A stretch of 64,000 nt of DNA. It comes from Lanius collurio. Taxonomy: Eukaryota; Chordata; Aves; Passeriformes; Laniidae. The position numbers were made by a program, and so were the translations under genes. The stretch lies in contig JACBWW010000003.1 in NCBI GenBank assembly GCA_020086605.1, positions 60,678,949 to 60,742,948 on the forward strand. Reading direction: 5' to 3'. This document shows positions 2,536-48,038 of the stretch, piece by piece. How positions within the stretch are numbered: position 1 is the first letter of the stretch; every line of letters starts with the position of its first letter. Under the pieces are notes generated by a model. That model was not told where the DNA came from and ran no database searches. It saw nothing but the letters and a program-made list of their open reading frames with translations.

Positions 2536-2643
2536 TAAATTTGGCAGAGTAGAAAGAGAACTTTACCTTTCAAGTCCATCCACCTCACATCCAAATATTT
2601 AATCCTAACAAACATTCAAATTGTTTCAGTTCAGAGATATTTC

Positions 2644-2957
2644 CCAGAATCAAAGAATCATTAAGGTTGGAAAAGACCTATAAGATCATTGAGTCCAGCA
2701 TCCACCACCATGTTCACCACTGAACCTAGTCTTCAAGTGCCAAACCCACTAGTTTTTGAACACTTCCAGGGATGGTGACTCCACCACTTCCCTGGCAGCT
2801 TGTTCCAATTCTTGACTACCCTTCCCATGAAGAAATGTTTCCTAATATCTAATCTAAGTCTCCCCTGGGAAAAGCTGAGCCCATTTGCACTCATCCTGTC
2901 ACTTGTTACCTGGGAAAAGAGAATGACATCCACCTCACCACAACCTCCTTTCAGGCT
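2644..2957 (-). mobile_element. CR1 LINE 3' end, antisense
   Basis: It starts with the CR1 tail complement CAGAATCAAAGAATCATT. Then follow GGTTGGAAAAGACC, GGGATGGTGACTCCACC, CTTGTTCCAATTCTTGAC and CCTCCTTTCAGGCTTGG, all in canonical antisense CR1 order. The element is 5'-truncated near 2957. Chance reading frames on both strands within it are not genes. Confidence 0.9.
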
Positions 2958-5470
2958 TGGCATTGAATTTTGTCTATCCAAGCTGCTGTGGTGAATCATG
3001 AAAACATAGTCCACAGCTTTTCCCTCTTCCTCAGGCTGGTGTCCTCACCTCTATTTCCTTTCCCTTGAGGCACCCTGGTTCCCTTGATAGCTGAGCTGTC
3101 CCCATGATTCATGTGTCACTTATTTTGAACAGTAACTTTTACTGTTTGAAAAACAGAAAGGATGTAACTTTTCCAGACAGTTTTCTTTCATCAAAAGCCG
3201 AACAAATCAATAGAAGTAGATCAGCTCTCACTGGTGATATTTTGATTGTCCATTGTGTTCTAGCTTAGGGATTTTCTCTGAGGTTAAATTCACTCCTGTG
3301 AAAACAGGGCAATGCAACAGAGACCTTGTTCTTGGTCAGCCAGCTGGAGACAAGAGGCCAGAGGAATTCTTGTAGCTGACAGGGGACAGACTGACCTGAG
3401 CAGAGGAATGGAGGACAAGAAGGAAGCCCCCAGACCTAGACTTCTTACAAGAACAATGAAAGGCAGCTGAGGGGGAGGGATAGGCAAGATACAAGACACC
3501 AGCTCTACAGTGATGCAGAGTTTATCATAGCACAGCTACTGACTCTGAATCCTCCTGCCAGCCAGGGGTGCTGCAGTTTTGACTGCACAGTCAGGTTTGA
3601 AGCAGAGCAAGGACTCTGACTGCACAGCTGATCAAATGGGCCATCAATCAAGTGACTCACTTTGTGTACTTAAAACTCCAGCTCAAAGTGAGGTTATAAT
3701 TCATACAGCTGAACACCTCCCAGAGCAGCTGCCTGAAACTTAAGGCAAGAGATGCTAAAGGAGGTAAAGCAGGTGAAAAATTACATTGCCAGTTACTAAT
3801 AATAAACATGAGAACTCCTTCTCCCAACCTTCTTCAAATGACATCTCATAAAATTATAGAAATGAGGTTTTTTAACTCGTTGGGGATTACCTTTATAGCA
3901 ATGCAAGGAGGAACATTAGAAGATAACTGGAGTAGGAAATTGCTGACCATGCAAAGAGTGGGCAGTGAACAAGACTTTAAAAAGGACAGGACTAGCCAGG
4001 TGTGAAAGAGAGTCATTGTTTCCTTGTGTGACTCTGCACAAAGTAAAGGCACTGGAGCTGGCTGGATCCAAGCTGGATCTTGATTTGTTTGCCTACAAAC
4101 AGGTTTCTGGTGCCATGTGAGATGGCTTGAGGTGTCTGAACAACTGCACAAGGAAGTCTGAAATGAGACTGTACTTCACAGACTGACAGTCTTCAAGATC
4201 AGATGCTAAATCCAGATTGTGAGACTCTGGGAGATCTCAAATGGCACTGCCATGATCAGACATAGAACACATCTATAGTACAGATCACTCAAGTTAGCTC
4301 AGGTGACTCCTTCCCCTTTCATAGACTATCAGAGGGGAAACCTGTAATGCAACATTACCCTTGTGCACAGAGCATCTGCTGCTACTTCAGTTTAAGCAAA
4401 TTTGGTTTAATGGAATAGGCAAGGAAATTACAGTAGTGTTGCAATTTAGATTCTGGAGTGTGATTTATGTTTGGGGCACAGATTTTGCATGTAAGTCATT
4501 GCAGTGTTTCTGTGCTCACCTCCTGTGCACAAAATGAGCATAACTGCATTTTCCCTTCTTTATAAAAGCAACCAGAAGTAGAATGTATTAATCAGGAGGA
4601 GAAGCTCTGACACCCAAGTAGAAGGCATTGCCATAGACATGGGGCTGTTGTGCAGTAATAGCTATTTTTGTCAGGTCAGCTGCGTTAGGGTCTTAAATGG
4701 AATACAGTTATTAAGAATAACACTATAACTAGCATTCAGGCATCTCCCTAATGTTGCATTCACTAGGAACAAGGAAATATGGTTTTCTGGAAAGAGATTT
4801 TTTACTTTCTTAAAAGACAAAAGGCCTAAATATTTTGTCCAGATATCTCTGTTTTCCAAGTTACAAATCTTTTTTTGGCAGAGCTGATGTGCTAAAACAC
4901 CTAAAAAATATGATAGGACTATGCCAAAGCCTCTGCAAAGGTAGCAAAAGCTACTTGTTAGCAGCTCCTTAAATAGACATCCTGGTGCAGACTGGGTGAG
5001 TGAAATAATGTGGAAAAATTTGGTCTTTATGTTGCAAAAGTGAGCAGACAGGAACAATGAGATATTAGGATGTTGGTTTTAATTGTTGCACATATATCAA
5101 TTTTAAGTCAAATTCACAGAAGTAGTTTATCTGCTGACAACATTGCCATGAACAGTACGGAACCGAAGTGTCAGAGTATAAGTGTGACTCCAGAAAATGG
5201 TCCTAACTGCTGCCCCCAGGAATATACATCTTTGTGTCTCTCTAAAGCCAAAGCTACTCTGGAAGCTGATGAAACAGATCTTTGAACATTGTTCACAATT
5301 TTGTCCAGTATTTGGGGACTTCTCCTGTGGCATGGCATAGTCCAGAGATATTCAGGGATGCCTTTGTTACTTCCTCACATGTCTCCTTTCTTCATGGGAT
5401 TTCTCTCTGGTACAGAGGCTTTGAAGGGGAAGGCTTAGAAGTGGGCCAGTCCCAGATCCCATGCCTTGGA
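2958..5470. other. Unique DNA, no gene recognised
   Basis: The longest frame is 128 codons (4671-5057, minus strand). It is rich in hydrophobic and cysteine codons as expected for AT-rich chance frames, and shows no domain. No repeat family is recognised. Confidence 0.55.
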
Positions 5471-5715
5471 TTCACAGAATCATTTGGCTGGAAAAGCCCC
5501 CTAAGGTCACTGAGTCCAGCCATCAGCCCAACACTGCCAAGCCCACCACTAAACCAGGTCTCTCAGTGACACAGACACACATCTTTTAGGTATCTCCAGG
5601 GATGGTGACTCCACCACTGCTTTGAGCAGCCTCTTCCAATGCTTGACAACCCTTTCAGTGAAGAAAATTTCCTAATATCCTATAAAAACCTTTCCAGGCT
5701 GTTTCCTCTTGCTTT
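5471..5715 (-). mobile_element. CR1 LINE 3' end, antisense
   Basis: The plus strand reads TCACAGAATCATTTGGCTGG, then CCAACACTGCCAAGCCCACC, GGGATGGTGACTCCACC and CAATGCTTGACAACCCTTTC, the antisense CR1 3' region. Similarity fades around 5715. Confidence 0.88.
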
Positions 5716-7875: not shown

Positions 7876-8083
7876 TAGAATCACAAAATGGTTGGAGTTG
7901 GAAAGGACCTTACAGATCATCCAGTTCCAACTCCCTTCCATGAGCAGGGACTCCTTCCACTAGACCAGGCTACTCAGAGCCCCAGTCAGCCTGGCCTTGG
8001 ATACCTCCAGGGATGGGAAGTCCACAGCCTCTCTGGACAACATGCTCAGAGAGACCAAATAATTTATTCAAGGTCTAATCTCA
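7876..8083 (-). mobile_element. CR1 LINE 3' end, antisense
   Basis: TAGAATCACAAAATGGTTGG, GGAAAGGACCTTACAGATCA, CCACTAGACCAGGCTACTCA and GCCTGGCCTTGGA follow the antisense CR1 tail order. The copy is short and 5'-truncated. Confidence 0.9.
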
Positions 8084-16360: not shown

Positions 16361-16857
16361 TTGCACCCAGCTCTGGTGCTGCAACACAGGAAAGATGGGG
16401 ACCTGTTGGAGCGAGACCAGACAAGGCCAGGGAGATGTTCAGAGGGCTGGAGCACCTCTCCTGGGAGGCTGCAAGAGTTGGTGTTGTTAAGCCTGGAGAA
16501 GGAAAAGTTTCAAAGAGAGCTTACAGCTCCTTCCTGTACCTAAAGGGGACTGCAAGAGATCTGGAGAGGGACTTTTGACAAGGGCATGGATGAAGACAAG
16601 AGGAATGGCTTTAAAATGACAGAGGAGAGGTTTAGATTAGGGGTAAAGGAGAAATTCTTCACTGTGAGGGTGATGAGGTACTGGAACAGGCTGCCAAGAG
16701 AAGCTGAGGGTACTCCAAGCCTGGAAGTGTTCAAGGCCAAGCTGAATGGGGCCTTGAACAACCTGGTCTAGTGGAAGATATTCCTGCCCATGGCAGAGGA
16801 GTTGGAACAAGATGATTTTTAAAGTCCCTTTCAACCCAAAATGTTCTATGATTCTTT
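16361..16857 (+). mobile_element. CR1 LINE 3' region, sense
   Basis: CACCCAGCTCTGGTGCTGC, GACCTGTTGGAGCGAGACC, GGGCTGGAGCACCTCTCC, CTTCACTGTGAGGGTGATG, AACAACCTGGTCTAGTGGA and TTCAACCCAAAATGTTC run in consensus order to the tail. About 500 bases of the end of ORF2 and the 3' UTR are retained. A 190-codon frame that overlaps its 5' half is incidental. Confidence 0.95.
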
Positions 16858-17380
16858 GTGGCTTTCTGTTGCATGAAGAAATCCACATAGAGAACATTAC
16901 AATTTTCTGCATTTCCCCTCCCTGAATGCACACTGGAGGCATAAATCCATATGATTTTACTGGTTTTAAAAGATTTATTTCAGTTCCTTTCTACTATTGG
17001 CTATTTTTTGTGGCTTTGATTTTTTGTTTGTCATTTGTTAGAGGCCAAACTTATTTGTGAAAAGGAAATGGAAACATTTATTCTCAAATTCATTGCATTG
17101 GATATATTCAGCATTTCTAATGCTCAGTCTTTTTCCATGTCCAGCCATAAGATATAGGACTTATTTTGAAAAAAAATATTAAAATTAAAATTAACCTAAA
17201 ATTAACCTAAAATTAAATCAGAGAAATCTTTTTACATGAGCAGCAAGCTCAAATCTTAATTATTTGTAGACATCCAGAGATCATTTCACACATTCACACA
17301 GGTGAAGAGGAGTTGTTCATGTCACCCTTCTGTAATTATATGAAGACAAGACAGGAAACCATCTGGCAAATGAGACCAAT
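16858..17380. other. AT-rich unique DNA
   Basis: Contains a small AT-rich reiteration around 17168-17218 (AAAATTAACCT repeated). Nothing else is recognised. Confidence 0.5.
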
Positions 17381-20400: not shown

Positions 20401-21953
20401 TTCCCCATAATCGTGTGTGCGTGTGTATGTCCTATTAGAGGTAATAAGGGCTATGTATTGAGAGCAGATGCTCTTTAACCAATAACTGTCTCATACTATT
20501 ATGTCTGGATTTATTTAAAAGCTGTTGTCTACCCATACCATGTGAGCATTAGAGTGCAGATTTCCACAACAAACCATTGAGAAAACTGTCAGTGCTGCTG
20601 ATTATCGCAGTGCAAGGATAAATTTCAGATCCATAAGGCTGGCTTTTTTTCTGAAGCTGACTTCACTGGTGTCAAACAAACCCTTGGAACACAAAAGATA
20701 AGTGTTCCCTCTACAGAAAAGCTGAAGTTCAAAATAATCTTGGATATGAGAAGGTGCACCTCAATGTTACATTACAGTTGGACTGGCTTGTGCATGGGTG
20801 GGGTTTTGACCAGAGTTAATAAAAAGGCAGAGGTTGGAGACAGAAAAAAAATAATCTGTGATAAGTTTGCTCTTGGGTTGAAAGTGCAATTTAGTGTGAG
20901 GTGGGTTCACTCCCTTCTTCATGTCAGAGTCATGAGGTATTGCAAAGCTCACTTTCCAGCTCGGGTCAGTCAGGGCAATAGGTTACAAAAACCTCTGTGA
21001 GAACTCAGGGAAAAGTAATGGGAAATGCTCTGCTTCATAAAAAAGGCAGAGAAAGAGAGAAAGCGACATAGAAAGTAGAGTGTGGGTGAAGAAAACCAAT
21101 AACAAAACACATTTACTGTGCAAGTGCAGCTCAGCATGGGGAGCTGAATTGAGTCAGGGGAATGCAGAGGTTTTGTTATCACACACATTTTTCATCTCAG
21201 TCCTCCTCTCTCCCTACACACAAAGGCAAACTAGTGGGCTCTGTCTACTCCACATAGGATTTCACATTTCTCTTTGAGCTGTGACTGCACATCTAGAAAC
21301 TCAGGGCTGCCCTGGGATCTCTCTTTTGGAGGTTCATGTTTTCTCTTCTTGAGCCTGTGGACTTCTTCCCTGATATTCTGCAGGCAGAAGTGGCTAGATC
21401 CTTTTAAAAGCTATTTATGAATAATTAAGTCCCCTCCCTCTATGCCGCATGAAATCTCATGATGCAGAACACTCTTCTGACATTTAGCATAGAGTATATA
21501 ACATTCTCAAACTCACTTTGCAAAATGCCTTTATTGCTGGTTCTTCACTGGTAGGTCATGAGGTTTCAGGTAATGTCAGCTAATTTATAAGGGAGAGCTG
21601 TCTGTGCTTTCTTTACCACAGACCTGGGATTATTTCTATTGTGGGAGAAAATAGGTAGCAAGAGTCAAAGACTGCAACCTCTGAAATGCCCCATTTATGT
21701 ATTTACTTGATTACATAAAACTTGTGCCACCGGGCAGAAAACATAGATACTGAACTTCTAATTAGATGGCACAGAGAAATCCAGTCCTTATTTCCACAGA
21801 GGTAAAAGCACAGATGTACAGACACACTCACACATGGGGGTGGCAGTCCTCAGAGACTGGGACAGCCCAGTTAGGATTCACTATTGTCTACCCAATGTAC
21901 AGGACTCAAACAGAGTACTTCTCTTTCACAGAAAAATTCTTTTTTCTCTCTTA
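17444..21953. other. Unique AT-rich DNA, no gene recognised
   Basis: The longest frame is 124 codons (18706-19080) and lacks any domain. There is a short (GT)n near 18857-18870 and a T run near 19373-19391. The stretch ends at the target site of the retroviral element. Confidence 0.5.
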
Positions 21954-21959
21954 GGTGAC
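21954..21959. repeat. 5' target-site duplication GGTGAC
   Basis: Six bases directly before the 5' LTR, identical to the six bases directly after the 3' LTR at 24533-24538. Confidence 0.95.
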
Positions 21960-22253
21960 TGTGGAGGTGCTTTCCCCTGAAATCGCAGGGGGAGGGACCC
22001 TGCAGGGTACGGGTCTGTCCCTGTCCCTGTCCCCATCTCACGTGTGCCCCATACCTGTTCCTGATTGGTTGTGTTTGGGGTGCCCGGGCCCGGGAAAGGA
22101 GAGAGGGTCCCATGACTGGGGTCTGCCTGGGAACTCCAGCCATGCAGCTGGAGGAATAAAATCATCTCTGAACATCTAAAGAAATATCGCTTCATCTTTC
22201 CTTCCAAGTTCATCACTGTCTTATATATGTTGTAAGGATTCCTCACTACAACA
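21960..22253 (+). mobile_element. 5' LTR (294 bp)
   Basis: Starts TGTGGAGGTGC and ends CACTACAACA. U3 is short and GC-rich, with GTCCCT reiterations, a palindromic E-box CACGTG at 22039-22044 and an inverted CCAAT box (GATTGG) around 22072. AATAAA at 22155-22160 can serve as poly(A) signal. No separate TATA box is obvious. By eye it differs from the 3' LTR at about 25 positions including small indels. Confidence 0.93.
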
Positions 22254-22255
22254 AA

Positions 22256-22274
22256 TGGTGGAGAATGCGGGCAT
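22256..22274 (+). promoter_or_regulatory. Primer-binding site, tRNA-Ala type
   Basis: TGGTGGAGAATGCGGGCAT begins two bases after the LTR. It is complementary to the 3' end (with CCA) of a vertebrate tRNA-Ala whose acceptor and T arm end in ATGCCCGCATTCTCCA, as I remember it. After these 19 bases there is one extra T, then CGATCCC resumes the match. The remembered tRNA is established knowledge; the match is by eye. Confidence 0.75.
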
Positions 22275-22377
22275 TCGATCCCTGAAAATGATTTCTAAAG
22301 GTCCGGAGTACACCGATGTGAATTGTGAGTAATTTAACTTTCTTATTGCCTTGTTTTTGGCTGTACTTTCTGACCAG
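22275..22377 (+). other. Leader with possible splice donor
   Basis: About 100 bases between the primer site and the first gag ATG. It contains a consensus-like donor GTGAGT near 22325. A pyrimidine-rich stretch ending CAG lies directly before the ATG at 22378. A packaging signal would be expected here but cannot be recognised by eye. Confidence 0.4.
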
Positions 22378-22827
22378 ATGGAGAAATCAGAGGAGTTGTG
22401 GCTATCTGAGCCAGAGAGAAAAATGTACTTGGAAGTGAAAGAAATTATAGTGAAACAAAATGCAAAACTGGACCCAGGACATTTAAAACACTTCTTTAAC
22501 TGGCTTTTCAAGAATTTCTTTTATGTCACTCCAGACTTAATTTTTGATGTTGGTTTTCCTGTGAATAGAGGGGACAATTTTTGGAAAGAAATCAATGAGT
22601 TGATAATGATTCAGTCAAGAAGTGGAATGGTAGTAGAATTGATATTAGCATCTTTTGCAATTGAAGATGCTCTCATAAAGTACATTCTCGGTCTCAGTAA
22701 CACAGAGGTGCCTGCGGCTGAGGTGCCTGCGGTGAAGGTGCCCAGCCCCCCTAAAAGCACCAGCCATAGAGCAGATCCCATCCCGGTATTGGAGTGCACT
22801 CCTGAGGGACAACGGGTGAGAGAGTGA
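22378..22827 (+). pseudogene. gag: Gag matrix-like frame of the provirus (149 codons, then TGA)
   Basis: The first ATG after the leader opens a frame of 149 residues. Residues about 12-100 have the helix-rich pattern of a betaretrovirus-type matrix domain (Gag p10 family): a K/L/V-rich first helix, an H-F-F-N-W-L-F aromatic helix, a G-F-P-V turn, a W-K-E-I-N-E-L-I helix, and a helical end. Glycine is absent at position 2, so N-myristoylation as in many Gags is not expected. A run of E-V-P-A repeats and prolines (about residues 112-126) follows, as in the linkers after many matrix domains. The frame ends at TGA 22825-22827, but the same frame is resumed by the cold-shock domain downstream. Capsid and nucleocapsid are not recognisable. 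The matrix call is by pattern only. Confidence 0.55.
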
Positions 22828-23538
22828 CGACGAAGACGCTGGATGTGAGAGTGCATTCCTAGAGTTCTCTGAGGTATCCTTACAGTGAATAAAGAAGGAC
22901 AGCTAGTAGGAATAGCTGCTGAAAAACACAAGGCATGAGCTGTGAAAGCAGAGGCACGAGCAGTGAGGGCAGCGGCGAAGGCGGCAGTGAGGGCAGCAGT
23001 GACAGAGGCACATCCTGGCGATGGCCGCCTTGCGCCGTGTGGTGAGTGATGGTCCAAGCCCGAGCCCTGCGCCGAGAAAGGCAGCAGCGATTGTGGCAGT
23101 CTCTATGGCAACCGTGGTGAGCCACGCCGAGCCGGGGTGGAGTGGGGATGAGAAGGGAACCGCGCTAACTCCCAGCAGTGACACGTCTGTAGTTGACGAC
23201 AGCAGCAGCAGCGGCAGTGCCAGCAGTACAAAGCCGCGCACACGCGAACGCCTCACAGGGCGCAGCCGTGCAGCCGCGTGAACGCTCAGAAAGCGTGGAG
23301 CAGTCACGGGGAGCTCCAGAGTAGAAGTGAGCACAGCACCAAGTGGTGGTGCAAAGGGGGCCGAAGGTGGAGCAGCCGGCAGGGTCAGCGTGCAGCAGCA
23401 CAGCCAGACTGGACCCGCACGGCCCCACACGCGATCCTGAGGAGTCCAGACCCTGCGACAGGAACGCACTGGCGGCCCCAGCCCCGGTGGTCCCGGCTGC
23501 GGCAGCTCCGACGCGAGAGTGAGAAAAACTAAAAGTGA
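22828..23538 (+). pseudogene. Disrupted GC-rich linker between matrix and cold-shock domain
   Basis: In the gag frame this stretch has TGA stops at 22846, 22870, 22936, 23047, 23149, 23179, 23194 and 23536 and a TAA at 23530. Between them are Ala/Val/Lys/Arg-rich repeats (about 22939-23010) and a long open part at 23197-23529. Other frames are also open in pieces: 23021-23281 (Ser/Ala/Pro-rich, frame 2), and 23331-23519 (frame 3), whose end is Ala/Pro-rich. Host Y-box proteins have an Ala/Pro/Gly-rich N-terminus just before the cold-shock domain, so part of this may be captured too. Composition is GC- and CpG-rich, in sharp contrast with the A-rich matrix and cold-shock parts. A 215-codon antisense frame here is a by-product of GC-richness. 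Confidence 0.5.
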
Positions 23539-23823
23539 AAGCAAGAACAAAGGAACTCAGAAAATGAAAAGGTTATCACAGCTAGGGTTTTTGGAACTGT
23601 AAAATGGTATAATGTAAAGAAAAATTACGGTTTCTTGTTGAAAAACGATACTGGAGAAAGTATTTTTGTCCATAAATCTGCTATTGTAAAAAAAAACCCC
23701 AAAAGTGATGTTCCAAGCTTAGAAGAAGGAGAAAGAGTAGAATTTAAAATTGTGCAAGGAAGGAAGGGCCCACAGGCCACATGTGTTACAGGCCCTGGGG
23801 GTGTCCCCTGTCAAAGACAGTAG
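23539..23823 (+). pseudogene. Captured Y-box type cold-shock domain (YBX-like)
   Basis: Ninety-four codons open between TGA 23536 and TAG 23821, in the same frame as gag. Residues about 11-90 form a cold-shock domain. It starts E-K-V-I, followed by F-G-T-V-K-W-Y-N-V; RNP1 is K-N-Y-G-F (28-32), RNP2 is I-F-V-H (42-45), then S-A-I, an insert with N-P-K, V-E-F (67-69), and the Y-box signature V-T-G-P-G-G-V-P (83-90). The four residues that contact single-stranded nucleic acid in YBX1 (Trp, Phe, Phe, His) are all present at 23, 32, 43 and 45. The long loop and the C-terminal signature point to YBX1/2/3 rather than LIN28, CSDE1 or bacterial CspA. Differences from host YBX are mostly conservative. 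There is no intron and no in-frame ATG before the core, which supports translation as a Gag fusion. The likely role is RNA binding, perhaps genome packaging in place of the missing nucleocapsid (inference). Confidence 0.9.
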
Positions 23824-24025
23824 ATACGTTAGACAGCATCCTCATAATCCCTGTCCTTCCCCCTATCCCACCTTCCTCTTTTCTCCCATGCCCTTTTATC
23901 CCCCATGTATGCCCAGCCAAAATTTCCCTTTCTGGTTCCCCTCACAAAACCAGGCTTTTCCATTTGCCATGAATCCCTTTGCAATGCCAATGGGGGGGAT
24001 GAAAAGGAGGGAGGGAAGAAATTAA
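23816..24025 (+). pseudogene. Frameshifted Pro/Phe/Met-rich C-terminal tail
   Basis: Just before 23816 the cold-shock frame still encodes the G-G-V-P signature. The residues expected next in Y-box proteins, a V-x-x-S-(K/R)-Y motif, are found not in that frame but in the +1 frame. The break is explained by one extra base in the short C run near 23810. The shifted frame stays open for about 68 codons to TAA 24023-24025. It encodes a low-complexity tail rich in Pro, Phe, Met, Ser and Asn, ending in a basic K-R-R-E-G-R-N. This does not resemble the arginine-rich islands of host Y-box tails, so it is either viral or strongly diverged. Confidence 0.65.
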
Positions 24026-24226
24026 CTGTCATTTTCTAAGATTCCAACAGGTACAGAAAGGAAAATCCCTTCCTCAGTTTCCATCTGAAGTGTGCTCAAG
24101 CCCTGTCTCCCTTCTGATGCTCCAAGGAAAATCTGTTTGCACATTTGGGGACTCAAGATAGTGGCTTCCTTTCCTTTGAAAATGTTTTGTTGTTTATCCA
24201 ACTGTATTTTCCAATGTTCTTTATTT
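24026..24226 (+). other. 3' untranslated region of the provirus
   Basis: About 200 bases between the tail stop codon and the polypurine tract. No envelope remnant is visible. Confidence 0.6.
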
Positions 24227-24243
24227 AAAAAGAAAGGGAGAAT
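24227..24243 (+). promoter_or_regulatory. Polypurine tract
   Basis: AAAAAGAAAGGGAGAAT directly abuts the 3' LTR, where plus-strand priming of retroviral reverse transcription occurs. Confidence 0.85.
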
Positions 24244-24532
24244 TGCGGAGGTGCCTTCCCCTGAAGTCCCGGGGGGAGGGACCCTGCAGGGTACGGGTCT
24301 GTCCCTGTCCCTGTCCCCATGTCACGTGTGCCCCATACCTGTTCCTGATGGGTTGGGTTTGTGTGCCCAGGGCCTGGGAAGAGAGCAGGGTCCCATGACT
24401 GGGGTCTGCCTGGGAACTCCAGCCTTGCTGGAGGAATAAAATCATCTCAGAACATCTACAAAATATCACCTCATCTTTCCTTCCAAGTTCATCGCTGTCT
24501 TATATATGTTGTAAGGATTCCTCACTACAACA
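24244..24532 (+). mobile_element. 3' LTR (289 bp)
   Basis: Starts TGCGGAGGTGC (the 5' copy has TGTGG) and ends CACTACAACA. It keeps the E-box CACGTG at 24323-24328 and AATAAA at 24435-24440. The inverted CCAAT box of the 5' LTR reads GATGGG here and is lost. A short CAG-type indel lies before the poly(A) signal. Confidence 0.93.
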
Positions 24533-24538
24533 GGTGAC
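24533..24538. repeat. 3' target-site duplication GGTGAC
   Basis: Directly follows the CA of the 3' LTR and matches 21954-21959. Confidence 0.95.
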
Positions 24539-26610
24539 CAGGAGTAAACTTTGAGGAGGTGCTTATTGTGTATGAATCTACAAGAAAATACATTAACACA
24601 TTGCTCAGCTTCTGGCTATGTAGCAATTCAGATTATTTCAATGACCGTTGTCAGTAAAAATTCATATTTGTCCATGCAGCTCCTTAATGTGGGTTCAAAT
24701 GCATGGCTGACCCATACATTTTTAAGCAGCTAGTTTTAATCCTGAGACTGACTTACTTTTTGCATAAAACATTTTTTTTTCTGAATATATATCATGTGCT
24801 CTGCAGGGTAAGTACATGTCAGTGGTTAAATTTACTGAACACTCCAGAGCAGCAGCAAAAATGACCTTTCTGACTGGGCCTTAGGTGAGCAAAGAAATGT
24901 TGCTCTGATGTTTCTGTCTGGTGTTTCAACCTTGCAGGACTCTTTTTTTGCAGCACAGATGTCTGAGCAGCCTCCCAAAGACAGAGGTGAGCAATTCCTC
25001 AGGGGAAGCAAGTCAGGCATCTAAGAGATGAAGAGCTGTTGAATTTGCAGTACTTCTGTCTGCTTTTCTAACCCAGACCCAGACTTAACAGATGGGTCCT
25101 AAGGTCTGTTTCATGACCCCCATGCTGTCATTGAGATCAGAAATCCCCGCTGCAATTACTGGTCAGTTCCCTTGTTCTCATCTGTATGAATGTTGACTCC
25201 CTGGGGAGAACATGGAAGTCAAGGAACTGAGTAAGGCTGACACTGTGTTAGTGAGCTCACAGGATGGATCCAAAACAGGATTCTTTATTTTAGGGTGGAT
25301 TACTGAATTTTTTCCTTTTTTTTCTTTTTAATTGTCTTTTCTGTTCTTTCCCAGTTTAAAGCAATTATCCCAATAGCAATCTGCTTAAAGAAAGGCCAAT
25401 TACAACAAATAAAAAAGAAAAAAGGAAAGGGATGAGGTAGGTCACTTTGCTATAAACCCTTTAGTAAACTGTGAAAAATGCAGAGCCCCAGAAGGCTTCC
25501 ACCAGCAGCTTTTGATCTAAGGATGAGTGGCTCTATCTCCTCTTCTGCAATTGCAGTCTTTGCTTCAGTTACATTATTCCTCCTCAGCTTGACTATGTTT
25601 TTCTATATTTCCCCTGTCTATTTTCTGAAGAGGCAATTGTTGTGAATGGTGGAGAAGGTTGAGTGCCTGACTGAAATAAAGGAAAATTAGTTTTTAAGGA
25701 GAGTAAATTGGATAGAATAGGACCCGTAAGGATAACAAGTTGGCGATAATTCAGTGTAGTCTTCCTGTTCTGCTCCTGTTTATTAAATATTCTTATTGAC
25801 TTCTGCTTCTCAGTACTCTGTGTTCTAGTGTACTAAATTACTGTAACTGAATATTCTGTCTACATATGCTGACTGGTCATTTGAGAGATGAGTGCACTTA
25901 AGACAGAAATGTTTTCCTTTAGTTCTTGGATCCTTGAAATGCCTATTATAAAATGTACATCTGTGAGAAGGCACTTCTCCTTGCCAAATGAGATTTAATG
26001 CTGAAAAAGCTACAGAGGTAAATAAAATAATAAACATTGAGGAGGAGCCTGCTTTTTGACTCACATTTCTCATTTCTAGCCACTAGAATTTTGGGTTAGG
26101 AATTAGTGCCTCCATATTCCCTCCAATAAAAGAAGTCCTAATACACAAATATTCCACAAAGCTTATTTTCCCCTTTTTGTGACCTACTGATTGAGCTTCC
26201 TAAATTTTTTACATTTTGGTTTCTGTTGCTTGGGGAGTAAGATGCTCTGAGTGTCAACTTCTTTGGAATGATATTGGGCCAAGGAATGCTGTCAAGCACA
26301 ACCAGGAATTCAACCCTCATATTTAACTCTTACTGTTTCTCCTGAAATAGTTTTGTCAAACACATCTAAAATTCTTTTGGATGATGCCTGCTTGTGGCAA
26401 GGAGAACAGCATAAGCCCGTGACTTCTCTCAACACAGATGAGACCATCCTGTTCTTGTGTGAGAAGCCTTGTTCCACATTTTTTTGGCCAGACAAGTCTT
26501 GGTTAATTTTCTTTCTGCTGCAGAGTAGATTAAATGTTCCAACTTTCTTTACTTTTCAGAAGAAGGGGATAGGGAGAAATTCCAGTTCTCTCACTTCCCT
26601 GACTGATTTA
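24539..26610. other. Unique AT-rich DNA, no gene recognised
   Basis: Only short chance frames. A purine-rich patch lies around 25387-25436. No repeat family is recognised. Confidence 0.5.
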
Positions 26611-27602: not shown

Positions 27603-27848
27603 AGAATCACACAATCATAATGTCTGGGGTTGGAATGGACCTTAAAAGATCAGCCAGTTCCCACCCCCCTGCTATGGGCAGGAGATCTTCCACTAGACCA
27701 GGTTACTCAGAGCCCTACCCAACCTGGCCTTGAACAATTCCAGTGATGGGTCATCCACAGCTTCTCTGGGACACTTGTGCCAGGACCTCACCACCCTCAC
27801 AGTGAAGAATGTCTTAAAATCTAATTGAAATCTACCCTTTTTCAGCTT
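27603..27848 (-). mobile_element. CR1 LINE 3' end, antisense
   Basis: AGAATCACACAATCATAATG, GGTTGGAATGGACCTTAAAA, CCACTAGACCAGGTTACTCA and CCCTCACAGTGAAGAATGTC are the antisense CR1 tail. The 5' boundary of the copy runs into a short duplication. Confidence 0.9.
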
Positions 27849-27883
27849 AAGCTTAAATTGAAATCAATCCTTTTTCAGCTTAA
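27823..27883. repeat. Tandem duplication, 28-bp copies at 33-bp spacing
   Basis: Copies at 27823-27850 and 27856-27883 share AATTGAAATC...CCTTTTTCAGCTTAA and differ at two or three bases. The duplication lies at the 5' end of the CR1 fragment. Confidence 0.85.
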
Positions 27884-30530
27884 ACTACTTGCCATTAAAG
27901 ACAAGTAGTTAGTTATCTGTTTTAAATTACTTTACACAAAATTGCATGAAGTATAAGATATCTAATTAATTGCTCTGAGATATTGTACCTAGCCAAATAC
28001 CTGAGCTCTTGTACCTCAGCTTAGAGAAATGCTTGGGAGTAGAACAGGTAAGTCTGTTCTCTCTCTGTGGATACAAGATTTAAGTTTTATACTACTGGGC
28101 TTCTTTAAGACAAGGAAGGCTTTGTAAGTGCTTTGCTCAGCCTTCCCAGTTTAAGGTATCGCTCAGCTCCACATTGTAGTCTTTGGAAAGAAGAGTAGGT
28201 GCTAGCTCCCATGTTTGCATCAGAAAAATCATTTTGAATTATGAACCCAACCTGTCAGGTTCAATTCTTTCTCAGGGTAGAATTCACACCATACAATTAA
28301 GGTGCTTATTTCATCACCCTCTTAAGGGAGAAAAAATGAAATAATGAGAATAGAAGTAACCTGGGTAACAATGATCATTTAACTCTTTCCTGAGTTTTTT
28401 TTCAAGATGTAAGTCACCACTTGCTTCTTGGGACTAGGCCTGGAAGAGCTCTTGTGAGTCATCCTCTCAAGTCTTCTATTGCAGAAAACCTCACCATCTA
28501 ATCTCTAATTTAATAAACTCAGAGTAAGTTCAAATATATATATGTACCTTGCAAAATTTTGATTTCCCTTTCAAGACTTAAATATCTTGAAGAAAAACTA
28601 AAGAATATGGATTCTGATCGTATGTAGTTGACCTTCCCCCAAACTGAATTATATGGCCTCCATATGCCCCCTTTCCTGAATTATTTTATATATGGGATTC
28701 CATTGAGATTTTCAATCTCACGATCCTGTTGGAAAGAAGTGAAAATTTGATAAGATCATTGCTTTTGCTAATATCATTAACTGCTCTTATTTTACCATGT
28801 TCATTTCTCTGAGATGCTTCAGCTTCTTCTGTTTATTCCCAAAAATGGTTCAAAGCAGAAGCTCTACAGAGATGCCAGCATTTGGAACAGAAAGAAGACT
28901 AGTAAAAATCTGTTCAGAAAGAGGATGGGGAATAAAAAATCACTTTTTATTTCCTTTATTACCACTATCTCTATTTCTATGTCTTATGTTAATTGCAAAA
29001 ATGGAAATAGCCAGAACACAGAGAATAAGTGGAAATATTTCTATTGTCTTTAATATATTCTGGACTTTGACACAGTTTGGATCTCCACAGAGGGTGGGAA
29101 GCATATTTGCTGACAGGAGCACATGCCTTCACCAAGTCTGTTAAATGCCACACTGTGCAGGCCAGTTGACCTTGGTGGCTTCTTGTCCCCTGTGGAGGCA
29201 GAAGCCATTCCAAGCAAGGCATAAGCAAGGTTATTATACATTGCCTTTAGCATGCAGGCCCTGAGGCCCCCATGGCCAACGTGTAGAGTGTATGGAAGAA
29301 CATTCTGCTTATTCTCCAGTGTTAGCAGAATGTCAGACCAGGGCGTCTGGGCTTCTATTCCTTTTCCTGTGCCTGTTCTCCACCTGTCTACCACAGAGAA
29401 CAGCAGTTTGTTCTTATTGCCATGATCTCAGTCTCGTTTTTGAAACTTTTTCCATGCTGGCAGCAGAAAGAAGGGTGAAGGGCTAAGATCAGTTTTTTTG
29501 TGTGAGTCAGTCAGCACTTCTATTTATGCTGGAAAGAAACAGAATTATTATGGGACATCTCAGCAGGTCTCATTAGCTCAGAGTTGGCCACTGTGAGAAA
29601 GCACATATGCCTGTCATGTTTTGCAGATTATCACAGGAAACCCTCCTCCAAGTCTTCTCTACCTCTGCTTTGCTCCCAGGGAAAGGACTGGGATGAAACC
29701 GTTGCTTTTCCTATTGTTGTTGTGTATTACTCATGAGGTGAGGGTGGTTTGCAGGGAGCTTTAAAAAACCCTCTCTGTCCATGGGTCTGCTTAATTAACA
29801 GACTGAACAAAGTCATAGATGAAGGAGGGACAGCCAAGAAAGGACTGCTGCATTGCAAAGCCCTGACAAAAGTCAGCAGGGCTACAGCCAGCTGCACAGC
29901 AAAAGTCCTACAAAGACTGAGAACATCTGAACATGGATTTCTAGGAAATAAAGCTTTATCTCTTAACCCTCACTCTGTTTCCTTGACTTCAGGTTGTGAA
30001 GCTATTTCCTAATCAAGATGCAGTAACTTAGGTAGCAGTCATGTAAAGATGTGGGTGGAAAAGATCCTGTCTTGAATTTCTGCTTCTGTAACATTTCTTC
30101 TATGAAAGCAAGTAGCATCAAGTATTATATTTCAATGCCATTATTAGTTTAGTTATATTGATGTAATCACTGATGTGATTACAGTTAGTGTGAACCAAAG
30201 AAAGCTCCTTAGTGAGACTGTAACTTGTTAAAGCAGTAACCTGTTCCTGATAGCTGGAGAAGGAAATACAAGAAAAGCAAGGGTGACATTTCTCCTGATA
30301 TAACGTCCTAAATACCATGAACCAGCACTTCAGATGCTTCCTTGTCTGAATGCTGCATCTGTATAGTTATGTTTAAAGGTGTTGATGGACTTTTTTCCAA
30401 GGATCTGTCAAATCACATTTTGCATTTCTGGAATTGTGTTTCTATGAGTTCCTCTATTCCCTTGTGCTCTATATGAAAGTATAAATCCTTTTCATGTTTG
30501 CTAAATTCCTGCCTCATTGTTTCACTCGTC
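27884..30530. other. Unique AT-rich DNA, no gene recognised
   Basis: The longest frames, 115 codons (28797-29144) and 114 codons (29050-29394), overlap on opposite strands and show no domain. No repeat is recognised. Confidence 0.5.
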
Positions 30531-30940
30531 ACAGAATCACAGAACCATCATGGTTGGAAAAGACCTCCAAAATCATCAAGTCCAACCTTTGACTGATCAC
30601 CACCTTGTCCACTAAACCACAGCACCAAATGCCACATGGAGCTGTTTCTTGAACACATCCAAGGATGGTGACTCCATCACTTCCCTGGGCAGCCCATTCC
30701 AATGCTTAACCACCATTTCAGTGAGAAATTTCCAAAATGAACATCCTCTTTCACAGCTTGAGGCTATGAACTCTCATCCTGTCACTTGTTATCTGGGAGA
30801 AGAGCCTGACCCCCACTTTGATACACCCTCCACTCAGGTAGTTGTAGAGTATGAGAAAGTATCCCCTGGGCCTCCTTTTCTCCAGGATGCACAACCCCAG
30901 CTCCCTCAGCCACTCTTCATATGACTTATGCTCCTATTCC
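30531..30940 (-). mobile_element. CR1 LINE 3' region, antisense
   Basis: ACAGAATCACAGAACCATCA, TGGTTGGAAAAGACCTCC, GGATGGTGACTCCATCACTT, GTCACTTGTTATCTGGGAGA and CCTCCTTTTCTCCAGGATGC follow the antisense CR1 order for about 400 bases. Confidence 0.93.
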
Positions 30941-31295: not shown

Positions 31296-31565
31296 TAAAA
31301 AGAGCAATAGGAAATGACCTCAAGTTGTGCCAGGGCAATTTAGATTGTATATAAAATTTTTTATATAATAAAAATTTCTTCACTGAAAGGTTTGTCAAAG
31401 TTGGAACAGTCTTTTCAGGGAAGTGGTGGAATCACCACCCTTGTAAATATTTAAAAGACATGTAGAAGTGGTACTTAGAGATATATTTTAGTGGTGACTT
31501 GTTAGTGCTGGCTTGACAGTTAGACATGATTATCTCAGAAGATTTTTCCAGATAATTGATTCCAT
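31296..31565 (+). mobile_element. CR1 LINE 3' region, sense, diverged
   Basis: GACCTCAAGTTGTGCCAGGG, TTTCTTCACTGAAAGG, GGGAAGTGGTGGAATCACCA, AGACATGTAGAAGTGGTACT and AGTGCTGGCTTGACAGTTAG are in CR1 sense order. An AT-rich insertion sits near 31350-31372. The copy is older than most in this window. Confidence 0.8.
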
Positions 31566-32692: not shown

Positions 32693-33293
32693 AACCAAAT
32701 CCTGGGCTGCATCACAAGGAGTGTGGGCAGCACTTTGAGGAAGTGGATTCTCTCTCTCCATTCTACCCTTGTGAGACCACACCTGGAGTGTTATGTACCC
32801 TTCTGACGTCCCCAACATAAGAAGGACGTGGAAAGTGTTGGAGCAATTCCAGAGGAGAGCCATGAAGTCTGTATTGATAAGAGGACTGGAACATCTCTCT
32901 TCTAAAGACAGGTTGAGAAAGTTGGGATTGTTCAGCCTGAAGAAGAGGAGGTTCCGGTGAGAACTCAGAGCGACCTTACAGGATGTTAAGGGGCTACAGG
33001 GAAGCCAGAGAGGGACTCTTCATCAGGAACTGTAGTGATAGGACAGAGAGTAATGCGCACACATTGAAAGAGGGGAAAATTAGGCTGGATATTAAGAAGG
33101 TCTTTACTGTGAGGGTGCTGACACACTGGATCAGGTTGCACCATCCCTGGAAGTGTCCAAGGCCATGTTGGATAAAGCTTGAGCAACCTGGTCCCGTGGG
33201 AGGTGTCCCTGCCCACAGCAGGGAGTTTGGGACTGGATCATCTTTAAGGTCCATTCCAACCTCTTAACATTCTATGATTCTGTGATTCTGTGA
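32693..33293 (+). mobile_element. CR1 LINE 3' region, sense
   Basis: About 600 bases run from CCTGGGCTGCATCACAAGGA through GTGAGACCACACCTGGAGTG, GTTCAGCCTGAAGAAGAGG, TTTACTGTGAGGGTGCTGAC and GAGCAACCTGGTCCCGTGG to TCTATGATTCTGTGATTC. This covers the last codons of ORF2 and the 3' UTR with tail. It is 5'-truncated. Confidence 0.96.
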
Positions 33294-36200
33294 TCATGCA
33301 AGTTGAGCACTCCAGCTCTGAGTGACAAAGGGAGAAACAGACATTTGATATTTGTGGGCCTGAATAAACTAGTAATAGATTAATAACAAGAACTGTGATG
33401 GAAGAAAACTGCACTACAGCAAGCGTGAGGAATAGCTATGTCATATTTCTGCTCTTCAAGTCTGCTCACTGACTCCACTGACCCCTGCTCTAGCCCAAGA
33501 CAAGCAATTATAAAATGTAGTTACTTTGTTTCCCCTTGCACTCTGAAGCATTTGGGTTTTTTAGGTTCTGGAAAGATTTCTCCAACCTGTCGTACAGGCA
33601 CCATTCACAGATGTGATGAAACACCGGTATGTTGTTCACAAATGAAGGAAAAATAAAGAGCTCTGTATTCCAACATTTAGTTCCATACCCATGTAGCTTG
33701 GCCCTCTGCCACACTGGAGCAGGGGCAGGCATCTCAGCCACACCACATTGCAGGCTGTTCCTCATTACATTCTTTCCCCTTTATTTTGCAGGAAAAAAGA
33801 GAAAAATAATAATAAAAACTCAATTTATGGACACATAGGAGAGATTTTTCATCATGCAAGTGGAGATAGAAGCAGCACATTCTCTTGAAAGTCATCTCTT
33901 TCATCTCCCACCTCCGAATACCCTTCACTTTCTGTATCCTCACTGGTGAGCAGAGGTTGTGCAGACCCTCACCCTACTGAAGGACCTAATGGATGCACCA
34001 GGCTTGGCACAGACTGAGGTCTGCAGGGCAGCAGCAGTAAACTCACCTTTCCTCTGCTCTCCTGTGTTTGCTGACAACATGAACAGCTCACTGCACCGAT
34101 AATCAGGAGCATCCACAGCAGGAAACAGGTTTGGCCAGTTCTTCATTCACCTGACCCAAAGCTAAAGACAAACATGTTACCCAGAGGAAAGTGGTGGGTT
34201 AGAGTTATGTAGGGTGACTGGCTAGTGCCTAGTTAATGGAGGAGATGTTCACTGAAGCCCCTGTGCAAAAATTCCGCCACATGAGAAAGTATCCAAATTA
34301 AGAGGGGTATTCAAATTGAAGTATTGTAATCCTCTGGAAGATCTGAGTTTTAAAAATACCACCTGTTCTTCTCTTTCCTGAGAAACATCTTGGCAAATTC
34401 ACAAAAGCAGCTGCAGCCTCAAGGCTGTGGCTCCACAGCTCCTCACCCACTTGTTCCAGTTGTGTCCCCAGTGGAAGGTAATTGCCTAATGGAGCCTAAG
34501 GATGGTTGAAGACTAAAAGCACTTAAGGCCCAGGGTAGAAACACAGGCATCCTCTCCTCAGAATTTCCTACCTCTGCCTCAAATTGGAGGGCAGTTTTGT
34601 GGAATCAGTTTTTAATCTCTCCTCAGTCACTCTGCTGGAAGCTTAGGCTTTTAATTCTGTGCAGTAATTTGGCTAAGAACCTGGTGAAGACTCAGGTGTT
34701 GAGACCATGCCCTTCTTGCTTTTCTCTGACATGTCCTTTACATCCTCTCCCCATTTTAGAGTCACAGCAATTGATGATCTTTGAGCTAGAGCTGCTGAGG
34801 ACTGAGGAGCCTGGTGCTCTGCCAAAACCATGCAGTGAAAGGAAATACTCAGCCAACAGTTCCCCTCTTTTCCCTCCTCTCTGTGGCATCCCATCTTAAT
34901 AACAAGGGGCTTTGGACCCTTCTATTAAATATGAGAAAAACTTTTGCATGGAAGAAAGTTAAGTTTTGTTCTCCTCAACCAAAACATGACTTTTATTCAT
35001 CTTTGTTTGTATAAGTGTAAGGTAAGTGGGTAATATGGCCACAAGGGCCTGAATTCATGCCCACAATTTTTAAAATTTTCTTCTAAGAATATAAAGAAGA
35101 ACAGCAGCAGCAACAACCACAATAAAAGAACCACAAAATCCAACAACCTTTCTATAAAATGTTGTTTCATAACAAAATTAGCACACCCCCTCCCCACCCC
35201 CACCCCCCCCAACCCTGAAGTGTCCTTTCTGGTTGACACGTTCAGACTTAGGTCTTACATGGCACCAGGTAACCTCTACTGAGGAAATCAGGGCTATTGC
35301 AAATGAAGTGCAGAATAGAGGGAGAATATGGTTAAGAGAGATATTAACAATAATAGTAACCTCAAAGAGAATATTCATATTTACAAAGGGACAAATAAAC
35401 CTCAATATGACTGAGAATTTAGGGCAAAGGAAACTTTACCCTACATTTTGTTGTTGGTAGTATATCACTGTAGGAGGTGCTAAGTCTGGCTTTAAAGTGC
35501 CTGAAAATATAGAAAAGAACATACATCAGAATCTGCCCTCATTAAAAACTGTGTTACTTCTCTGACTTTACCAAAAGCAGAATATGGTTTTCCAAAAGCA
35601 GATTTTAGCCTCACAGATGACTCTGATCATATACAGTGCTATAAATTGCTAATGGGCTTGTGGATTCTGTAAAGCAGGAAGGAATTGGTTGGAAAAGTGC
35701 TGTTTTCAAAAGAGTTTCTAAAAGAGGAGAGAAGTGAACATAATCAGGGTTCCTGCAGAAATCCAAGGTCAGGCTGGGAGCAGAATTTTGGAGAAGGAAA
35801 TCAGTAAAGAATGAAAAGTTAGGAGGATGAGAAGGGCTTCCCTTCTCAGAGAAAGGATTAAAATGACTGTGGAAATGAGAAGGATGTCCCAAAATGTTAA
35901 TCATGTGGCAAGGGCTTCAGAAAGCCCTTGCTCTCCGGCTAAGCCACTCTGCCTGTGGTCTCTTCAATGGTTCTTAGCTGGGACCATCTCTCTATTTGTA
36001 CAAAGTTTAGCACAACAGGGACCTGCTCTCTGCTCTCTTATATCTGCAGGCATCAGCGTCACACAACTAATTAACAGCAGTAATAAATGATACTGTATTG
36101 CCTCTTAACCCTTGGCATTTATTTTTCCGTGGGCTGCATTAAAAAGAACAAAAAAATTAAAAAAGAAGAGAAAGATTAATAATCCTCAGTCAGAGTGAAC

Positions 36201-38865: not shown

Positions 38866-39112
38866 TTATAGAATAACATAATGGTTTGAGTGGGAAAGTG
38901 TTGCAGTGAGGGTGGAAAGGACCTTAAAAGATCACCTTGTTCCAACCTCCTTGCCATGGGCAGGGACACCTTCCATAGACCAGGTTGTTCAGAGCCCCAT
39001 CCAACCTGGTCCTGAGCCCTTCCAGGGATGGGGCATCCAGCACTTCTCTGGGCAATCTGTTCCAGTTCTTATCACTGTCATAGTAATGAAAGTCTTTCTA
39101 ATAACCTGAATC
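38866..39112 (-). mobile_element. CR1 LINE 3' end, antisense
   Basis: AGAATAACATAATGGTTTG, GGAAAGGACCTTAAAAGATC, CATGGGCAGGGACACCTTCC and CAGAGCCCCATCCAACCTGG mark an antisense CR1 tail. A 20-base insertion near 38897-38912 interrupts the start. Confidence 0.92.
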
Positions 39113-39154
39113 TATTTTAATATTAAAATATTTTAATATTATTTTAATATTAAA
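39113..39154. repeat. AT palindromic reiteration
   Basis: TATTTTAATATTAAAATATT and variants repeat about three times. Each unit is nearly self-complementary (TTTTAATATTAAAA). It sits exactly at the 5' end of the CR1 copy. Confidence 0.85.
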
Positions 39155-45080: not shown

Positions 45081-45138
45081 CTTTCCTTCCAACTTCATCG
45101 CTGTCTTATACTTGTTGTAAGGATTCCCCATTACAACA
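45081..45138 (+). mobile_element. 58-bp LTR remnant of the cold-shock-domain retroelement family
   Basis: CTTTCCTTCCAACTTCATCG to CATTACAACA matches the last 58 bases of the LTRs at 22 and 24 kb with a few changes, including the CA terminus. The bases GGATGG directly before (45075-45080) and directly after (45139-45144) are identical, like a 6-bp target duplication. The rest of the LTR is missing. Confidence 0.8.
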
Positions 45139-45338
45139 GGATGGTTCTATTCCACAGTTACTTCAAGTTAGAAACTGTTAAAGCTGTTGATTTAGATTAG
45201 GTGTTTCTGCTCTTAGGACTGATGGTGTTAAAGCTCTTTGCCCTGAAGGAGAAAAAATTGACCTTTTTGTAAACTTTTCATTGATCAAGATCAAAAGGAA
45301 TTGATATTTATTTAAGAAAAAAAATCTATTGGAATAAT

Positions 45339-45628
45339 GACTTTTTGCACAGGTAGAAAGTGATAGGAAGGGGGGAATGGTTTTAAACTAAAGGAGGATA
45401 GACTTAGATTAGTTATTAGGATGAAACTTTTACTGTGAGGGTGTGAGACACTGGTACAGGTTCCCCAGAGAAGCTGGGGCTACCCCAGCCCTGAAAGTGT
45501 TTGAGACCAGGTTGGATGAGGCTTTCAGTAACCTGGTCTAGTGGAAAGTGTCCCTGCCCATGGCAAGAGGGTTGGAACAAAATGATTTTTAAGATCCCTT
45601 CCAACCCAAGCCATTCTGTGATTCTGTG
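45339..45628 (+). mobile_element. CR1 LINE 3' end, sense
   Basis: AGTGATAGGAAGGGGGGAAT, ACTTTTACTGTGAGGGTGTG, GTAACCTGGTCTAGTGGAA and CCATTCTGTGATTCTGTG follow CR1 order. It shares a long identical core with the antisense copy at 47774-48038. Confidence 0.95.
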
Positions 45629-47773: not shown

Positions 47774-48038
47774 ATCACAAAATTATAGAATCAGAGAATG
47801 GCTTGGGTTGGAAGGCACTTTAAAGATCATCCAGTTCCAACCTTCTGCCATGGGCAGGGACACCTTCCACTAGACCAGGTTGCTCAGAGCCCCATCCAAC
47901 CTGGCCTTGGACACTTTCAGGGCTGGGGTAGCCCCAGTTTCTTTGGGCAACCTGTACCAGTGTCTCACACCCTCACAGTAAAAGTTTCATCCTAATATCT
48001 AATCTGAATCTACCACCTTTTATCTTAAAGCCATTTAA
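47774..48038 (-). mobile_element. CR1 LINE 3' end, antisense
   Basis: ATCACAAAATTATAGAATCA, GGTTGGAAGGCACTTTAAAG, CACTAGACCAGGTTGCTCAG and CCTCACAGTAAAAGTTTCAT show an antisense CR1 tail. Its nearest relative in the window is the inverted copy at 45339-45628. Confidence 0.95.

What the first reader, a model, noticed from the sequence alone, without database searches (positions are those of the whole stretch)
21954..24538. Provirus with a captured Y-box cold-shock domain fused to gag
Seen: two LTRs, matching 6-bp target duplications, primer site, polypurine tract, a matrix-like frame and, in the same frame, an intronless Y-box cold-shock domain with all four nucleic-acid-contacting residues. 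Known: YBX proteins bind and package RNA and interact with several retroviral RNAs, and retroviruses can transduce host genes as gag fusions. Inference: this is a transducing, non-autonomous retroelement family in which a host RNA-binding domain replaced or supplemented nucleocapsid. I know of no described family with this layout.
Basis: partly seen in the sequence, partly recalled or inferred. Interest (0 to 1): 0.95.

Follow-up and report, generated by a model that had tools for sequence, protein, structure and literature searches.

The report
Bird retrovirus carrying captured cold-shock domain
A short, broken ancient retrovirus, in what looks like a bird genome, carries an RNA-binding-type domain whose closest match is the animal protein YB-1; the virus lineage likely took it from its host and likely kept it working before this copy inserted, which would make it an unusual case of a virus adopting a host RNA-binding protein.

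Summary
The provirus is real. Two LTRs of about 290 bp (K2P 0.058), identical 6-bp target duplications, a primer site matching tRNA-Ala(AGC) 18/18 (recalled tRNA) and a polypurine tract bound a 1,990-bp interior without RT, protease or zinc-knuckle motifs. Inside lie a 149-codon gag-position ORF and a gapless Y-box cold-shock domain (CSD; Pfam 2e-21; 46/83 identical to YB-1, four contact residues kept). "Fused to gag" is not shown: the frames share a register, but ten stops and a CpG-rich block separate them, the CSD has no ATG, and no profile recognises the gag ORF. The main new result is timing. Two vertebrate YB-1 chains are identical over these 83 residues, yet the proviral copy differs at 37; LTR divergence allows about 5 since insertion. 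dN/dS is about 0.2 (human codons recalled), and 1 of 5000 neutral simulations reproduces the pattern. So the domain was probably captured well before this insertion and kept under selection in an element lineage. Other copies could not be sought: no bird genome was reachable. ERVs with captured host mRNAs are known (crocodilian KIT-ligand, nectin3); my searches listed none with a cold-shock domain.

The parts
21954..21959 (.). left target-site duplication GGTGAC
21960..22253 (+). 5' LTR, TG...CA, 294 bp, AATAAA at 22155
22061..22068 (+). inverted CCAAT (Y-box core CTGATTGG) in the 5' LTR; changed in the 3' LTR
   Evidence: alignment; name of the motif recalled
22256..22273 (+). primer-binding site, 18/18 to recalled vertebrate tRNA-Ala(AGC)
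22378..22827 (+). gag-position ORF, 149 codons, ATG to TGA; not recognised by any profile
22900..23520 (+). G+C- and CpG-rich block between the gag ORF and the CSD, origin unknown
23539..23823 (+). stop-to-stop ORF with the Y-box cold-shock domain (83-codon alignment to YB-1 at 23566-23814); no ATG
23741..24025 (+). ORF in another frame that overlaps the end of the CSD; its part after about 23815 is Pro/Phe/Met-rich and may be the displaced continuation of the Y-box frame
   Evidence: open length of the tail not significant (204 of 1000 shuffles); no Pfam, NCBIfam or PDB match
24227..24242 (+). polypurine tract, 16 purines, one base before the 3' LTR
24244..24532 (+). 3' LTR, 289 bp
24533..24538 (.). 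right target-site duplication GGTGAC

Best explanation
This is a 2.6-kb defective LTR provirus without RT, protease or zinc-knuckle motifs that carries a gapless Y-box cold-shock domain, which was likely captured from a host YBX1-like mRNA by an ancestor of the element, likely kept under purifying selection while that lineage copied itself, and is predicted to bind the element's RNA. Shown: the LTRs, target duplication, polypurine tract and domain, and the lack of those motifs (simple patterns, six frames). Inferred: that the copy came from spliced mRNA (exon borders recalled), and that the capture predates this insertion, from 37 of 83 residues changed against about 5 expected since insertion. 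Inferred: that a helper virus moved it in trans. Untested: the function. The mechanism I commit to is that the product coats and stabilises the element's own RNA, as host YB-1 is reported to do for MLV genomic RNA, and so would give it an edge in packaging by the helper. Whether it was made as a Gag fusion or as a separate protein is open.
For: Provirus borders. The CSD aligns to YB-1 without gaps over 85 residues at 101.5 bits, against 52.6 for the best bacterial cold-shock chain. YB-1 chains 6lms (human, by recall) and 6a6j (zebrafish, as named) read identically over these 83 residues in the printed alignments, so a freshly captured copy should be near 100%, not 46 of 83. LTR K2P 0.058 gives about 0.029 per lineage, by my arithmetic about 7 base and 5 residue changes in 249 bp since insertion. 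Codon-position identity to recalled human YBX1 is 59, 66 and 38 of 83 for positions 1, 2, 3; dN 0.32, dS 1.55. In substitution-only neutral simulation to the same identity: no stop in 1157 of 5000, four contacts kept in 306, changes as conservative as observed in 19, all three together in 1. The LTR pair shows 6 gap runs per 16 substitutions (my count), the CSD alignment none. Residues that YB-1 shares with CspA are kept at 23 of 30 against 12 of 35 elsewhere (p 0.0007); with CspB 21 of 29 against 13 of 32 (p 0.012) (Csp letters recalled). No RT, protease or CCHC pattern in six frames. Plausibility of the function: YB-1 is reported as a cofactor of HIV (abstract start, passages), and a title in that paper's reference list says that YB-1 stabilises MLV genomic RNA.
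Against: Only one copy is seen. The domain has no ATG and is cut off from the gag ORF by ten stops; no acceptor with a good pyrimidine tract lies just upstream of it. dS includes the host branch from human to bird, so the ratio is biased low. Human YBX1 codons and the Csp sequences were recalled. ORF length alone is modest evidence (4 of 1000 shuffles of 23530-23830 reach it, but 172 of 1000 of 23530-24243). At the LTR indel rate about 2.6 indels would be expected in the CSD since insertion, yet none is seen; so that rate may not carry over, which weakens the indel argument. LTR gene conversion would make the insertion look too young. A diverged host paralogue as donor is not excluded. RNA binding and any role in packaging are untested.
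Confidence: 0.6

Rival explanations
1. One-off LTR-mediated retroposition: during the reverse transcription that made this very insertion, the enzyme switched templates to a packaged YBX mRNA and back, leaving a chimeric retrocopy that never replicated again.
For: Mechanism is described for animals, with chicken among those using it (Tan et al. as described in passages of PMC5408686). Single copy in hand.
Against: The copy would then be about as diverged as the LTRs (about 3% per lineage), but 37 of 83 residues, and 86 of 249 bases against recalled human codons, differ with the reading frame kept.
Confidence: 0.12
2. Recent capture from an already diverged host Y-box paralogue or retrogene, so the divergence arose in the host and not in the element.
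For: No bird genome could be searched, so such a paralogue cannot be excluded.
Against: The two YB-1 chains are identical here and the YBX2 chain 7f3i differs from them at 6 of 83 columns (my count); a host paralogue at 55% would be exceptional. At those 6 columns the element agrees with YBX1 at 4, YBX2 at 1, neither at 1.
Confidence: 0.2
3. An independent YBX retrocopy inserted later into an older provirus.
For: The domain has no ATG and does not join the gag ORF.
Against: No run of 6 or more A between the domain and the 3' LTR, and no 9-mer shared by 22828-23566 and 23816-24226; a copy younger than the provirus should not be more diverged than the LTRs.
Confidence: 0.03
4. The domain is an accessory protein made from its own spliced message in the element lineage, acting on transcription (binding the Y-box motif in the LTR) or translation rather than on packaging.
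For: Separate position from the gag ORF; donor-like sites (7 of 9 consensus bases) at 22325, 22816 and 23042; a CTGATTGG motif at 22061 in the 5' LTR, one of three in 64 kb on both strands.
Against: No good acceptor just upstream of the domain; the motif is changed in the 3' LTR; CCAAT boxes are common in LTRs (recalled).
Confidence: 0.25

Closest known systems
Crocodilian ERVs with captured host mRNAs: CrocERV29 (KIT-ligand) and CrocERV31 (nectin3), Chong et al. 2014, PMC4299795
   Same: Vertebrate ERV lineages carrying a captured host mRNA reported as under purifying selection; a nectin3 consensus is about 76% identical to the host protein (passages and section 10 read)
   Different: Captured genes are a cytokine and an adhesion molecule; KIT-ligand came without loss of an ERV domain, nectin3 replaced env; several copies known. 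Here an RNA-binding-type domain, a 1,990-bp interior, one copy seen
Bs1 of maize
   Same: LTR element with transduced cellular gene sequences (passages of PMC5408686; its short, non-autonomous nature recalled)
   Different: Plant element; three other cellular genes
Acutely transforming retroviruses (delta-gag-oncogene genomes)
   Same: Defective LTR-delta gag-host gene-LTR layout moved by a helper (recalled)
   Different: Those are young, often fused in frame and encode growth regulators (recalled); here no intact fusion and a diverged RNA-binding-type domain
LTR-mediated retrocopies in metazoans (Tan et al. 2016, as described in PMC5408686, passages)
   Same: Host mRNA brought between LTRs by template switching
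   Different: Copies of a parent gene made in one event; here strongly diverged with frame kept
Host YB-1 as retroviral cofactor (PMC6040738)
   Same: Same kind of domain, acting on retroviral replication (passages read)
   Different: Host-encoded, not carried by the virus

Membership tests
Y-box cold-shock domain | CSD profile match, with Y-box proteins as best matches and the C-terminal VTGPGGVP stretch | tested here: met
Y-box cold-shock domain | four nucleic-acid-contacting residues (W, F, F, H; recalled from YB-1 structures) | tested here: met
LTR retroelement (provirus) | paired LTRs, target duplication, primer site, polypurine tract | tested here: met
   (tRNA recalled)
Class II (ERVK / betaretrovirus-like) ERV | 6-bp target duplication (recalled as typical) | tested here: met
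Class II (ERVK / betaretrovirus-like) ERV | RT phylogeny | not testable with these tools
   no RT motif in the interior
Class II (ERVK / betaretrovirus-like) ERV | recognisable class II Gag/matrix | tested here: inconclusive
   gag-position ORF has no match, but divergence could hide one and structure prediction was off
Transducing (host-gene-capturing) retroelement | intronless host coding sequence between LTRs | tested here: met
   exon layout of YBX1 recalled
Transducing (host-gene-capturing) retroelement | several insertions with the same junction | not testable with these tools
   genome search unanswered; viral scans empty
Gag-CSD fusion | continuous frame from gag ATG to CSD | tested here: not met
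   ten stops from 22825 to 23536, in this copy
Non-autonomous element | lack of pol and zinc-knuckle sequences | tested here: met
   six-frame patterns for protease, RT and CCHC empty; of 9 interior ORFs scanned in Pfam only CSD passed its cut-off (5, 4); integrase and env had no pattern of their own

The most novel reading that the evidence does not exclude
A bird endogenous retrovirus lineage swapped its zinc-knuckle nucleocapsid for a stolen Y-box cold-shock domain, making the host's general mRNA-packaging domain the packaging domain of a retroelement.
Probability: 0.15. Interest if true: 0.88.

Novelty: new variant of a known kind. Interest (0 to 1): 0.6.

Why it matters
Capture of host genes by retroviruses is described as uncommon (PMC4299795), and the captures that I know of are mostly growth, signalling or adhesion genes (partly recalled). 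Capture and apparent long retention of an RNA-packaging domain would mean that a genome parasite took over the host's own mRNA-coating chemistry, and would give a natural experiment on which cold-shock residues matter for retroviral RNA.

Tried and rejected
Tried without result: protein collection with the CSD piece (4 candidates, 3 hits of 63-68 aa, which I read as bacterial-type cold-shock proteins) and with the gag piece (5 candidates, none at E 0.1 or better); the third search was not used. Four of 8 viral-contig scans used: CSD, gag, LTR pattern, primer-site pattern, no relative. Genome-contig scans (bacteria and archaea): LTR pattern 0; CSD 34 loci out of 108 matched stretches, all with bacterial record titles, a control rather than relatives. 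Tail ORF against PDB: none. tRNA and Rfam scans of the window: none. Structure prediction was off, so the matrix question stayed open.

Rejected: late retrocopy inserted into the provirus (no A run or flanking repeat; too diverged). Rejected as evidence: the shared register of gag and CSD frames (one in three by chance). Weakened: the Pro/Phe-rich tail as coding (204 of 1000 shuffles as long); its resemblance at the junction to the residues after the YBX1/YBX2 CSD is recalled only. Ten paper searches listed no paper whose title or printed start of abstract describes a cold-shock or Y-box domain inside an endogenous retrovirus. Several lists were capped (20 of 217, 12 of 15, 10 of 29, 12 of 198, 12 of 55), and of the papers only passages, one outline and one section were read.
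Full report
Observation. The stretch 21954-24538 is a complete LTR-bounded insertion. The LTRs (21960-22253, 294 bp; 24244-24532, 289 bp) begin TG and end CA and align at 271 of 296 columns; 287 aligned bases carry 8 transitions and 8 transversions, K2P 0.058, with 9 gap columns that I count as 6 runs. They are flanked by the same 6-bp word GGTGAC. Two bases after the 5' LTR an 18-base stretch matches the 3' end of vertebrate tRNA-Ala(AGC) at all 18 positions; the best of eight other recalled tRNAs matches 14 (tRNA letters recalled). A 16-purine tract ends one base before the 3' LTR. At a recalled bird neutral rate of 2-3e-9 per site and year the LTR divergence means roughly 10-15 million years.

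Host. The window holds several copies of a dispersed repeat, some with ATTCTRTG tails (three), which I recognise from memory as CR1, the bird and reptile LINE. A bird host is therefore likely; 'songbird' was not tested.

Interior. A 149-codon ORF with an ATG at 22378 sits in the gag position. Its stop-to-stop length (164) was reached in 0 of 1000 dinucleotide shuffles, so it was probably coding, but no library recognised it (Pfam, NCBIfam, PDB, protein collection, viral contigs). 'Matrix' is thus position plus impression. Six frames of the interior contain no CCHC knuckle, no protease D(S/T)GA-type motif and no (Y/F)xDD motif by simple patterns; of 9 interior ORFs scanned in Pfam (5, 4) only the CSD gave a match above its cut-off. 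Integrase and env had no pattern of their own.

The cold-shock domain. The ORF 23539-23823 matches Pfam CSD at 2e-21. Its best PDB matches are Y-box proteins: YB-1 1.9e-28 (101.5 bits) and YBX2 3.2e-27, against 3.7e-13 for the best bacterial chain and 7.1e-10 for the best LIN28 chain. The alignment to YB-1 is gapless over 85 residues and crosses what I recall as several exon borders, so the copy is probably mRNA-derived. Of 83 residues 46 are identical, and the four contact residues are kept. At the 6 columns where the printed YBX1 and YBX2 chains differ, the element agrees with YBX1 at 4, YBX2 at 1, neither at 1 (my count), so a YBX1-like donor is favoured but not proven. The length of the ORF alone is modest evidence: 4 of 1000 shuffles of 23530-23830 and 172 of 1000 of 23530-24243 reach it.

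Not a fusion in this copy. Gag ORF and CSD share a register, but ten stops lie in that frame from 22825 to 23536, and the CSD ORF holds no ATG. Between them is a block of 58-72% G+C (22900-23499) with CpG observed/expected 0.41-1.07. Of the 21 other 100-base windows from 21900 to 24599, 15 lie at 0.40 or below; the six above it include 22800-22899 (0.76) and the start of the CSD, 23500-23699 (0.93 and 1.14, few CpGs). The origin of the block is unknown; a host CpG island captured with the domain is one guess. Donor-like sites (7 of 9 consensus bases) occur at 22325, 22816 and 23042; the acceptor-like sites found start exons at 22378, 22535, 22886 and 23917, none just before the CSD. Behind the CSD the frame is lost and another frame stays open to 24025; that tail is not longer than chance (204 of 1000 shuffles).

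Timing and selection. The printed alignments show YB-1 chains 6lms (human, by recall) and 6a6j (zebrafish, as named) identical over the 83 residues. A bird host copy should have been essentially the same (inference). LTR divergence implies about 0.029 changes per site since insertion: by my arithmetic about 7 bases and 5 residues in this stretch. Observed are 37 residues and, against recalled human codons, 86 of 249 bases. So most of the residue change predates this insertion and took place off the host gene's constraint, yet not freely: codon-position identity is 59/66/38 of 83; dN 0.32 and dS 1.55 (dS includes the host branch, so the ratio of about 0.2 is biased low). Of 5000 neutral, substitution-only simulations run to the same identity, 1157 had no stop, 306 kept the four contacts, 19 had changes as conservative as observed, and 1 met all three. 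The LTR pair shows 6 gap runs for 16 substitutions, whereas the CSD has none against YB-1; but at that rate 2.6 indels would be expected in the CSD since insertion alone, so the rate may not carry over and I lean on this less. Sites shared with bacterial CspA were kept at 23 of 30 against 12 of 35 elsewhere (p 0.0007); with CspB 21 of 29 against 13 of 32 (p 0.012) (Csp letters recalled). The simple reading is that the domain was carried and used by an element lineage. LTR gene conversion, or a donor that was itself a diverged host paralogue, would weaken this.

Mechanism. I commit to an RNA role: a CSD product that coats the element's RNA, stabilises it and favours its packaging by a helper virus. 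Host YB-1 is reported as an HIV cofactor (PMC6040738: start of abstract, passages), and a title in its reference list states that YB-1 stabilises MLV genomic RNA (that paper not read, the attempt found it not held). Whether the product was a Gag fusion, and whether it replaced nucleocapsid, is not shown. A transcriptional role is a rival: the 5' LTR carries CTGATTGG at 22061, one of three such words in 64 kb.

Comparison. Closest are crocodilian ERVs that captured KIT-ligand and nectin3 mRNAs, with codon tests for purifying selection (PMC4299795, passages and section 10), and maize Bs1 and LTR-mediated retrocopies (PMC5408686, passages). Boman et al. on estrildid LTR families (PMC6523648, outline and passages) have no 'cold' or 'Y-box' in the main text; a paper on passerine ERVK solo-LTRs (PMC11009239, passages) has no 'Y-box'. 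No paper on a cold-shock domain in an ERV appeared in the listings of ten searches, which cover open-licence papers only and were partly capped.

Limits. One copy; no bird genome reachable; structure prediction off. The claim of a lineage or family therefore rests on divergence alone.

Noticed in passing
window 45081-45139: A 58-60 bp stretch 90-92% like the end of the LTR, ending ACAACA; no matching LTR body by BLAST and no clear target duplication around it, perhaps a related older LTR.
   Followed up: partly
window 22061-22068: Y-box core (inverted CCAAT, CTGATTGG) in the 5' LTR; altered in the 3' LTR. Only two others in 64 kb, at 15706 (+) and 8394 (-).
   Followed up: partly
window 22900-23520: G+C- and CpG-rich block inside the provirus; could be captured host 5' sequence.
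   Followed up: partly
window 23815-24025: Pro/Phe/Met-rich tail behind the CSD in another frame; contains a Y-P-x-x-L-like word, which recalls late-domain motifs; weak (motif recalled).
   Followed up: no
window 7876-8044, 16604-16860, 27608-27850, 33103-33294, 38910-39114, 45376-45625, 47786-48035: Copies of one dispersed repeat, recognised from memory as CR1.
   Followed up: no
window 2642-2955, 5469-5679, 30529-30838, 31363-31562, 60131-60252: Second dispersed repeat family, not identified.
   Followed up: no
window 57032-57146: Two identical 57-bp copies in tandem, one base apart.
   Followed up: no
window 23539-23820: The CSD also scores to the NCBIfam retron Se72 effector family (4.6e-8, below its cut-off), a bacterial cold-shock protein tied to a reverse transcriptase (recalled); probably only shared fold.
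   Followed up: no
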